Below the pieces are notes generated by a model. That model saw only the letters and a program-made list of their open reading frames with translations. It did no database searches and was not told the origin of the DNA. From Candidatus Saccharimonadota bacterium (GTDB lineage: Bacteria; Patescibacteriota; Saccharimonadia; Saccharimonadales; AWTP1-31), in the NCBI GenBank assembly GCA_026395435.1, contig JAPLYT010000012.1, forward strand, positions 1 to 37,552: 37,552 nt of DNA, written 5' to 3'. The position numbers were made by a program, and so were the translations under genes. This document shows positions 4,116 to 24,201 of this stretch, in pieces. The first letter of the stretch is position 1. Each line of letters begins with the position of its first letter.

Positions 4116-4156
4116 TCACGAGTTGTAGCACATTCTACACGTTCCTTTTAGTATAT

Positions 4157-4395
4157 TCCCGGGTAGCCTACAAATAAGCGTGGAACAAGATGCTCCACCA
4201 GAGCTACCTAGGAAAAATCAACATTAAAATTATAATCCCGGGTAGCCTACAGATATGTGTGGAGCAAGATGCTCCGCCAGAGCTACCTGAGAAAATCGTT
4301 CGTTCACCAATATATTCCCGGGTAGCCTACAAATAAGTGTGGAGCAAGATGCTTCACCAGAGCTACCTGAGACTTATATACATACACCACAATAT
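4157..4395 (+). repeat. Three tandem ~80-bp tRNA-like units upstream of tRNA-Asn
   Basis: TCCCGGGTAGCCTACAxATAxGYGTGGARCAAGATGCTYCRCCAGAGCTACCT starts at 4157, 4236, 4316; the tRNA starts at 4396 (spacing 79/80/80). Confidence 0.9.
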
Positions 4396-4470
4396 TCCCG
4401 GGTAGCTCAATGGTGGAGCAAGAAGCTGTTAACTTCGAGGTTGTCAGTTCGAGTCTGACCCCGGGAGCCA
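4396..4470 (+). tRNA. tRNA-Asn(GTT), CCA encoded
   Basis: Acceptor TCCCGGG/CCCGGGA, D-arm GCTC..GAGC, anticodon loop CTGTTAA, T-arm GTCAG TTCGAGT CTGAC, G73 CCA. Confidence 0.93.
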
Positions 4471-23281: not shown

Positions 23282-23354
23282 ATTGGTTACGGATAAATTA
23301 GTGCATATTAAATACTGACACAAATAAGTATTTAAATACATACGTTTGCAATGG

Positions 23355-23480
23355 TATAATACAGCTTATGATTTTTCAGAATATAACTGCAGGATTTTCA
23401 AAGAAGCGCTCAAAGCTTAGGCCATAGCGTATTTTTCTGCATATATTCACACCTCTCGCTATGGCCGAGAGGTGTTTTTT
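23355..23480 (+). promoter_or_regulatory. Leaderless leader peptide plus terminator/antiterminator upstream of M23 gene
   Basis: TGG-TATAAT at 23355-23360; ATG 23368 encodes MIFQNITAGFSKKRSKLRP*; terminator ACACCTCTCG-CTATGGC-CGAGAGGTGT-TTTTT (23449-23480); GGCCATAGCG 23420-23429 complementary to CGCTATGGCC 23457-23466. Confidence 0.7.
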
Positions 23481-23511
23481 ATGTACCGTAAATTTGAAAT
23501 AAGGAAAAACT

Positions 23512-24201
23512 ATGACAACCCTAACTACAGAAATAATGCCGGAGCTCTTTAGCCGGTCTGAAATACTCATCTGGAACTTTAGCGATATCACACCCGGTGA
23601 TGCCCATAAAGATATCCAAAGATACATGGATGAACAAGAACAAAACGGTCATGATCCGCGTGACGCGTTCCACCGGCAAGCATTCAATGAGCAGGTCTTT
23701 GATCGAATCGAAAGCAGATATTTAATTGGCAGATATGCCGAAGATAGAAGCGACATCCTCCGCGGCAGCCATATGGCCGAGGAGGGCAGGACATACCATT
23801 TGGCCATGGATATATTCTCTCGAGATTTCGAGCCGGTGTTTGCACCGTGCGATGGAGAAATAGTCCGCAGCGAGTATGAGCCGGGGCTCAATAACTACGG
23901 CAACTATGTGATCATCCGGCCAGACGATGCATCGCTGCCCTATATATTTATGGGGCACCTAGATAGCACGAGGCTGCCGGTGGGCAGAGTCTCGGCCAGG
24001 CAGACCATTGCCCATCTGGGAACATTCGAGAATTTAGAAAACGGTGGTTGGAGCGTGCATGTGCATTTGCAATTACTAACCGTACTCCCGCCAGAAGGCG
24101 AGTCGCCGATCGGCTATTCCAGCCTGGCTGATCTGGAAGCAAACAAACAGCGGTTTCCAGACCCACAGGCACTATTCCCGCAGTGGAATATTACTCGCTG
24201 A
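23512..24201 (+). CDS. M23/LytM-type peptidoglycan peptidase-like protein
   Basis: HLAMDIFSRDFEPVFAPCDGEIVRSEYEPGLNNYGNYVIIRP...VHVHLQL; SD AAGGA. Confidence 0.75.
   Translation: MTTLTTEIMPELFSRSEILIWNFSDITPGDAHKDIQRYMDEQEQNGHDPRDAFHRQAFNEQVFDRIESRYLIGRYAEDRSDILRGSHMAEEGRTYHLAMDIFSRDFEPVFAPCDGEIVRSEYEPGLNNYGNYVIIRPDDASLPYIFMGHLDSTRLPVGRVSARQTIAHLGTFENLENGGWSVHVHLQLLTVLPPEGESPIGYSSLADLEANKQRFPDPQALFPQWNITR

What the first reader, a model, noticed from the sequence alone, without database searches (positions are those of the whole stretch)
23355..23520. Second leaderless attenuator: basic leader peptide and mutually exclusive hairpins before an M23 peptidase
Extended -10 TGG-TATAAT ends 7 nt before ATG of MIFQNITAGFSKKRSKLRP*. 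The last codons and stop (AGG CCA TAG CG) form GGCCATAGCG, perfectly complementary over 10 nt to CGCTATGGCC, which spans the loop and inner arms of a perfect 10-bp terminator (ACACCTCTCG/CGAGAGGTGT-TTTTT). A ribosome reaching the stop would block the antiterminator. Stalling earlier, for example in KKRSK, would favour read-through into the cell-wall hydrolase. Alternatively the 10-nt match is a kissing/pseudoknot RNA.
Basis: partly seen in the sequence, partly recalled or inferred. Interest (0 to 1): 0.76.

Follow-up and report, generated by a model that had tools for sequence, protein, structure and literature searches.

The report
Leaderless leader-peptide attenuator before M23 gene
In a tiny Saccharibacteria genome, a 19-residue peptide read from the very first base of the transcript probably decides, by where its ribosome stalls (most likely on two lysine codons), whether RNA polymerase stops early or goes on into an M23-peptidase-like gene; the mechanism is known from Actinobacteria, but I found no report of it in this phylum.

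Summary
The 10-nt match exceeds chance (0.0005 of shuffles; -16.7 kcal/mol antiterminator, z -3.9; outlier among 29 strong terminators in ~400 kb of the same genome).

This leader is unique: M23 relatives lack it and no DNA homologue was found in 246 genomes. Its interpretation is backed by a class I found in the same genome and order. Leaderless short ORFs with cognate codons precede MetRS (MM), a second ThrRS (TTTT), prephenate dehydrogenase (YY; this window, minus strand) and Asp/AsnRS (DNN). Two more precede orphan genes; one has covarying antiterminator and terminator helices across three genomes. Ribosome-masked folding makes the M23 leader an off-by-default attenuator opened by a stall at Lys12/Lys13.

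Best reading: a ribosome-mediated transcription attenuator, probably Lys-responsive, controlling a putatively cytosolic M23-like protein ('cell-wall hydrolase' is not supported). The mechanism is known in Actinobacteria; this is a new member in a phylum where it seems unreported. No expression data exist.

The parts
23352..23360 (+). extended -10 element TGG-TATAAT (weak -35-like TTTAAA at 23331-23336, spacer 18)
   Evidence: sequence; scan; same element 5-9 nt before ATG at 23 places in the genome, 3 for the reversed control pattern
23368..23427 (+). leaderless leader-peptide ORF MIFQNITAGFSKKRSKLRP*
   Evidence: sequence; translation not shown experimentally; class of similar leaderless sORFs before aaRS genes in the same genome
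23401..23406 (+). AAG AAG (Lys12-Lys13), proposed control codons; first base of K13 lies 16 nt before strand 2
   Evidence: geometry compared with the ThrRS leader (T14, 16 nt) and L053 leader (P13, 17 nt), read from sequences; ribosome-masked folds
23379..23394 (+). P1 5' strand (GAATATA, TGCAGGA), anti-antiterminator
   Evidence: MFE fold; analogous ORF/pre-terminator pairing in the ThrRS leaders
23432..23448 (+). P1 3' strand, ends immediately before the terminator
   Evidence: MFE fold
23420..23429 (+). antiterminator strand 2, GGCCATAGCG, contains the stop codon
   Evidence: sequence; shuffle tests
23457..23466 (+). antiterminator strand 3, CGCTATGGCC (terminator loop plus inner arm bases)
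   Evidence: sequence; shuffle tests
23449..23480 (+). intrinsic terminator, 10-bp stem, 7-nt loop, T6
   Evidence: one of 29 strong terminators in ~400 kb
23501..23505 (+). Shine-Dalgarno AAGGA, 6 nt before the M23 start
   Evidence: sequence; the closest orthologue (L012) has instead TATAAT 8 nt before its ATG, i.e. is itself leaderless
23512..24201 (+). M23-domain protein, 229 aa, metal-site residues H96, D100, H149, H183, H185 present and invariant, no signal peptide apparent
   Evidence: PF01551; alignments; NF004799 E 4.8e-22; weak LytM-type PDB matches

Best explanation
A ribosome-mediated (leader-peptide) transcription attenuator. RNA polymerase starts at or next to the A of ATG 23368, so the transcript begins with the leader ORF and is translated as a leaderless mRNA. 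With no ribosome, P1 and the terminator form. With fast translation, the ribosome reaches the stop codon and covers strand 2 (23420-23429), so the terminator forms: transcription ends near 23480 and M23 is off. If the ribosome stalls with Lys12 or Lys13 in the A site, it breaks P1 but leaves strand 2 free. Strand 2 then pairs with strand 3 (23457-23466) before the terminator's right arm is made, so polymerase reads through and M23 is translated from its own Shine-Dalgarno. The most likely signal is shortage of charged tRNA-Lys (AAG codons). Shown: sequence parts, improbability of the complementarity, energetics, and a class of like elements with cognate codons in the same genome and order. Inferred: transcription start, translation of the ORF, termination in vivo, and the signal. 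My estimates: attenuator 0.75; Lys as the signal about 0.45 given an attenuator.
For: (1) Parts and non-randomness. (2) Ribosome-masked folds: A-site K12 leaves the antiterminator as best fold even in the full transcript (-19.6); A-site K13 gives antiterminator -16.7 before the right arm exists; near the stop only the terminator (-17.1). (3) Same genome: leaderless sORFs with cognate codons before MetRS (MIKSNYVTQVVMMPRLG), second ThrRS (MIYSVISNQSTTTTVLS, terminator), Asp/AsnRS (MLTVVITQDNN...), and in this window prephenate dehydrogenase (MINLNVAQSYLVPYYLAD, terminator). (4) Conservation of the class: Met-codon leaders in 8 of 30 MetRS loci; Thr leaders in 4 genomes; Tyr leaders in 4 relatives. 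LysRS control: 0 of 30 with a Lys-rich leader. (5) Closest architectural match, L053 and relatives (PP at codons 11-13, strand 2 near the stop, strand 3 in the terminator loop): a G>A change in strand 2 is matched by C>U in strand 3 and G>A in the right arm, so both exclusive helices are kept. (6) M23 here has a Shine-Dalgarno, as expected for a second cistron, while its closest orthologue is leaderless.
Against: The leader itself is seen in one genome only; M23 relatives lack it and no DNA homologue exists in 246 genomes. LysRS in this order has no leader, and no Lys function of the M23 protein is known; the only hint is GNAT neighbours in relatives with weak AblB matches (17-18 bits, cut-off 205). 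Allowing G-U, 3.9% of shuffled leaders give a run of 10. With K13 in the A site the finished terminator is slightly more stable than the antiterminator, so the switch would have to be kinetic there. Covariation rests on 3 sequences, and its shuffle control is weak (167/500). No transcript, termination or ribosome data.
Confidence: 0.72

Rival explanations
1. Same attenuator, but the stall is not caused by Lys shortage: an arrest-type peptide or antibiotic-dependent stall at basic motifs (KKR, RSK, KLR are of the +X+ form at which macrolides stall ribosomes), or shortage of another amino acid (Ser, Arg, Phe).
For: Seven basic or Ser residues in codons 11-18. KKR with K13 in the P site would put the ribosome edge about at strand 2, still freeing most of it. 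The target is not a lysine gene. The macrolide +X+ point is from general knowledge, not tested here.
Against: The confirmed members of the class in this order carry cognate amino-acid codons. RSK and KLR stalls would cover strand 2 and so act in the off direction. R14-S15 and R18-P19 codons are partly explained as RNA strands (CGCT/AGCG and strand 2).
Confidence: 0.3
2. The 115-nt promoter-ORF-terminator unit is a stand-alone small transcript (small protein or sRNA), and M23 is expressed from another promoter between 23476 and 23511 or by read-through from the glycosyltransferase gene.
For: The terminator is strong (-17 kcal/mol). M23 relatives live without the leader. A poor -10-like TAAATT lies about 16 nt before the M23 start.
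Against: Only 36 nt separate terminator and ATG. No good promoter is there. The stop-proximal/terminator-loop complementarity and P1 are unexplained by this reading. The same layout recurs before cognate aaRS genes.
Confidence: 0.15
3. The 10-nt match acts as a loop-tail (kissing or pseudoknot) interaction that coexists with the terminator, for example as a ligand-binding or protein-binding RNA.
For: The 7-nt loop CTATGGC is fully complementary to GCCATAG of strand 2; 7-nt loops can pair completely in kissing complexes (general knowledge).
Against: The full 10-bp duplex takes bases from both terminator arms, so it cannot coexist intact. No Rfam family matches. In the L053 and ThrRS leaders strand 3 takes more of the left arm, so exclusion rather than coexistence is the common feature.
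Confidence: 0.07
4. Chance: an ordinary terminator of the upstream gene next to a fortuitous short ORF and promoter-like sequence.
For: Single genome; promoter-like hexamer pairs in the region are no commoner than in shuffles.
Against: Shuffle and genome-wide terminator controls; exact extended -10 to ATG spacing, enriched genome-wide over the reversed pattern (23 vs 3); whole leader fold z -3.8.
Confidence: 0.06

Closest known systems
ilvBNC leader-peptide attenuator of Corynebacterium glutamicum (PMC11857589)
   Same: Transcription start one nucleotide from the leader start codon; 15-aa leader peptide; three hairpins acting as anti-antiterminator, antiterminator and terminator; antiterminator and terminator overlap.
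   Different: Branched-chain codons and a cognate biosynthetic operon, proved by mutation; here Lys codons, an orphan M23-like gene, another phylum, no experiment.
Leaderless leader peptides of Streptomyces lividans (leuL, trpL, ilvL, metL, thrL before thrS) (PMC8079986)
   Same: Short ORFs transcribed leaderless, control codons, terminator hairpins in most; thrL lies before thrS as in the ThrRS leaders found here.
   Different: No sequence relation seen; several of those lack a clear intrinsic terminator; targets are amino-acid genes and synthetases.
Polycysteine leaderless sORF attenuators of mycobacteria (Canestrari et al. 2020, seen only as cited in PMC13236596)
   Same: Leaderless sORF whose codons sense one amino acid and control the operon downstream (title only).
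   Different: Details not read here; Cys instead of Lys codons.
trp/thr/his leader attenuators of Enterobacteria
   Same: Logic of strands 1:2, 2:3 and 3:4, control codons placed one ribosome length before strand 2 (general knowledge).
   Different: There the leader peptide has a 5' UTR and Shine-Dalgarno; here it is leaderless, and strand 2 contains the leader stop codon.
L053-type Pro leaders in Saccharibacteria (L053, L165, L166; this work)
   Same: Leaderless sORF (not clear for L166), doublet at codons 11-13, strand 2 at the end of the ORF, strand 3 in the terminator loop, orphan target with Shine-Dalgarno.
   Different: Different peptide, RNA sequence and target; that leader is conserved in three genomes.

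Membership tests
Ribosome-mediated leader-peptide transcription attenuators | Short translatable ORF at the 5' end of the transcript | tested here: met
   ATG 7 nt after the extended -10, 19 codons; ORF presence only, translation not shown
Ribosome-mediated leader-peptide transcription attenuators | Mutually exclusive terminator and antiterminator, position-dependent on the ribosome | tested here: met
   ribosome-masked folds; shuffle tests
Ribosome-mediated leader-peptide transcription attenuators | Intrinsic terminator between leader ORF and structural gene | tested here: met
   10-bp stem, T6, 23449-23480
Ribosome-mediated leader-peptide transcription attenuators | Control codons for one amino acid at the place where a stall frees strand 2 | tested here: inconclusive
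   AAG AAG at codons 12-13, 16 nt before strand 2, same as T14 of the ThrRS leader; only a doublet, and other basic codons follow
Ribosome-mediated leader-peptide transcription attenuators | Target gene belongs to the metabolism or charging of that amino acid | tested here: not met
   M23-domain protein of unknown role. This is common for the class but not required for the mechanism; two other orphan targets exist in this genome
Ribosome-mediated leader-peptide transcription attenuators | Conservation or covariation of the alternative helices | tested here: inconclusive
   no orthologous leader found; met for the sister L053 leader
Ribosome-mediated leader-peptide transcription attenuators | Read-through rises when the cognate aminoacyl-tRNA falls | not testable with these tools
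   needs a reporter or RNA-seq
T-box, riboswitch or other Rfam leader | Match to a covariance model | tested here: not met
   only tRNA-Asn matched in the window at gathering scores
M23 cell-wall hydrolases (exported) | M23 domain with HxxxD and HxH metal ligands | tested here: met
   PF01551; H96, D100, H183, H185 invariant
M23 cell-wall hydrolases (exported) | Secretion signal or membrane anchor | tested here: not met
   N-terminus MTTLTTEIMPELFSRSEILIWNFSDI has no signal-like hydrophobic run, and relatives are alike (by inspection, no signal-peptide predictor was available)

The most novel reading that the evidence does not exclude
Saccharibacteria, which depend on a host for amino acids, use leaderless leader-peptide attenuation as a general amino-acid gauge. 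It controls not only synthetases and biosynthetic genes but also a set of orphan accessory genes, among them this M23-like protein (Lys) and the L053 protein (Pro), as a starvation response.
Probability: 0.35. Interest if true: 0.68.

Novelty: new member of a known kind. Interest (0 to 1): 0.5.

Why it matters
Regulation in Saccharibacteria and other Patescibacteria is almost unknown, since few can be grown and they carry few regulators. A code-like rule (which amino acid is doubled in a leaderless sORF tells which shortage switches on the gene) would let one read amino-acid-responsive genes directly from genomes of uncultured bacteria, and gives uncharacterised genes a testable condition of expression. 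It would also mark leaderless attenuation as shared between Actinobacteria and their Saccharibacteria epibionts.

Tried and rejected
DNA search with the whole leader in 246 genomes of the order: only short chance matches besides itself. Upstream regions of 5 M23 relatives from the order and of 6 further database loci: no similar leader. LysRS leaders as the expected home of a Lys attenuator: none in 30 loci, LysRS is often itself leaderless. First genome-contig scan with the single M23 sequence found nothing; the alignment found 11 loci. Relatives of the L007 (Leu-rich leader) target: none in 384 genomes, so that leader could not be tested by comparison. Rfam: nothing in the window besides the tRNA; the ThrRS main-copy leader in L047 looked T-box-like by eye but gave no Rfam hit at gathering scores. 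Pfam on the L053 target: no family. A first Pfam call failed through wrong coordinates.

Full report
What is there. An extended -10 (TGG TATAAT, 23352-23360) lies 7 nt before ATG 23368; the ORF of 19 codons ends at TAG 23425-23427. GGCCATAGCG (23420-23429) is perfectly complementary to CGCTATGGCC (23457-23466), which is the 7-nt loop of a perfect 10-bp terminator (23449-23475, T6) plus two bases of its left and one of its right arm. 36 nt after the stem an M23-domain CDS starts (23512) behind AAGGA. The unconstrained fold also shows a long pairing P1 between codons 4-9 of the ORF and the segment just before the terminator (-36.3 kcal/mol, z -3.8).

Is it more than chance? Shuffling the leader while keeping dinucleotides gives a 10-nt Watson-Crick run to the terminator in 1 of 2000 cases, or 3.9% when G-U is allowed. 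The energy of the antiterminator with a ribosome masking the first 46 nt is -16.7 against -8.2 +/- 2.2 for shuffles; 7 of 5000 do as well. Among 29 strong terminators found in the window plus 18 stretches of the same genome (about 400 kb), this one has by far the longest upstream complement to its loop region, 10 nt, the next 7.

Is the leader conserved? No relative of it was found. The genus has one genome. The M23 gene occurs in 9 of 392 genomes of the order at any strength and in six convincingly; their upstream regions carry no such leader, nor do further database loci. The best orthologue (58%) is itself transcribed leaderless by its look: TATAAT 8 nt before its ATG. The window gene has a Shine-Dalgarno instead, which is what a gene behind a leader ORF needs. 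Record titles of the relatives place the organism in Candidatus Saccharibacteria.

A class in the same genome. Searching the genome for TGNTATAAT 5-9 nt before ATG gave 23 places against 3 for the reversed pattern. Most start normal genes, but several start short ORFs followed by hairpins and a gene: MIKSNYVTQVVMMPRLG before methionyl-tRNA synthetase; MIYSVISNQSTTTTVLS with a terminator before a second, short threonyl-tRNA synthetase (NF003068, TIGR00418); MLTVVITQDNNLRVVSKTSTVRFA before an Asp/Asn-type synthetase (identified by eye from its sequence); MISVFNQLQLLLSLHGLCFNIVEA before an unknown protein. A survey of the stretches added MITFNLVTFITPPAPIRHRRLG before an orphan 152-aa protein. In the four assignable cases the repeated residue is the one the downstream gene charges or makes.

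Conservation of the class. Upstream of 30 MetRS genes from the order, 8 have leaderless ORFs with internal Met codons, six of them with two or more, nearly all ending in or containing Met-Pro, with otherwise different sequences. Four ThrRS copies in three families carry MIYSVISNQSTTTTVLS, MMNSIIPSNQSTTTVLS, MIYSINSNQATTTTVLS and MIYSIISNQAKTTTVLS; the strand 2 to terminator-loop pairing is CCGTCGGG/CCCGACGG or a G-U or one-mismatch form of it, and a P1-like pairing of early ORF and pre-terminator segment is folded as in M23. Tyr leaders precede prephenate dehydrogenase in relatives, one ending YYLVPYYLAD like the window's. LysRS, used as a control, shows no Lys-rich leader in 30 loci.

The closest sister. 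The Pro-type leader of L053 occurs with its orphan gene in two further genomes (peptides ...SPPTPSRHRRLG and ...LPPAPERHRRLS). Its geometry is that of the M23 leader: a doublet at codons 11-13, strand 2 in the last codons, strand 3 in the terminator's left arm and loop. Between the genomes one base of strand 2 changes G to A, its partner in strand 3 C to U, and the partner of that base in the terminator's right arm G to A, so both exclusive helices survive. With three sequences this is one event, and the shuffle control is not impressive (167/500 and 181/500), but a three-way change is what an attenuator predicts.

How it should work. Folding the part of the transcript not covered by a ribosome (13 nt hidden beyond the first base of the A-site codon; an assumption) gives for A-site Lys12 the antiterminator in both the partial (-16.7) and full (-19.6) transcript; for Lys13 the antiterminator until the right arm exists, then a terminator of slightly lower energy (-18.9); for A-site codon 19 only the terminator (-17.1). 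So free RNA and fast translation both terminate, and a stall on the AAG AAG doublet reads through. The first base of Lys13 lies 16 nt before strand 2, as does Thr14 in the ThrRS leader, and 17 nt for Pro13 in L053 (read from the sequences). For the Leu-rich leader only the isolated Leu17 fits (17 nt), and for the Tyr leader the first Tyr codon lies 19 nt and the YY doublet only 4-7 nt before its short strand 2, so the rule is not uniform. R18-P19 and probably R14-S15 are imposed by RNA strands, so the peptide's basic end should not be over-read.

The target. The M23 protein keeps the metal ligands of the family but shows no signal peptide; its best curated match is the M23 part of NF004799/PRK06148, and sequence matches to solved LytM-type enzymes are weak. 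In relatives a GNAT gene precedes it, with only weak resemblance to beta-lysine N-acetyltransferase AblB (17-18 bits, cut-off 205); that is a lead, not evidence. Calling it a cell-wall hydrolase goes beyond the evidence.

What is known. Leaderless leader-peptide attenuators are established in Actinobacteria: C. glutamicum ilvBNC with anti-antiterminator, antiterminator and terminator (PMC11857589), and Streptomyces lividans with leuL, trpL, ilvL, metL and thrL before thrS (PMC8079986). In the held library no paper joins Saccharibacteria or Patescibacteria with leader-peptide attenuation or leaderless promoters; the library lacks most subscription papers. I therefore file this as a new member of a known kind, with the phylum and the orphan target as the new points.

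Verdict. Observation confirmed. Interpretation as an attenuator is likely (about 0.75), with the signal Lys at about 0.45 given that. Everything about transcription, termination and translation remains inferred.

Noticed in passing
window 25067-24952, minus strand: Leaderless Tyr leader MINLNVAQSYLVPYYLAD (-10 TATGCT) and terminator AAACCGCC-ACACA-GGCGGTTT-T7 before prephenate dehydrogenase (24925-24191); relatives have YY-rich leaders too.
   Followed up: partly
window 4130-4395: Three tandem near-repeats starting TATTCCCGGGTAGCCTACA... that resemble the 5' part of the tRNA-Asn directly downstream (4396-4470), without being called tRNAs.
   Followed up: no
L055, L056, L064, L066, L067, L068, L077, L079 upstream of MetRS: Leaderless Met leaders with a Met-Pro motif and a short GCCC...GGGC hairpin overlapping the Met codons: seemingly a different design in which the stalled ribosome covers the hairpin itself.
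   Followed up: partly
L134-L137: A second, short ThrRS (442 aa, about 85% identical) in four genomes of three families, absent from most others: probably horizontally moved together with its Thr attenuator.
   Followed up: partly
L007 708-1516, minus strand: Leu-rich leaderless leader MISVFNQLQLLLSLHGLCFNIVEA with a 10-nt match TGAAGCCTGA/TCAGGCTTCA before an orphan 216-aa gene found in no other of 384 genomes; an L10_leader lies nearby.
   Followed up: partly
L176: An Actinocorallia (Actinobacteria) genome holds a 42%-identical M23 homologue, possible exchange between Saccharibacteria and Actinobacteria.
   Followed up: no
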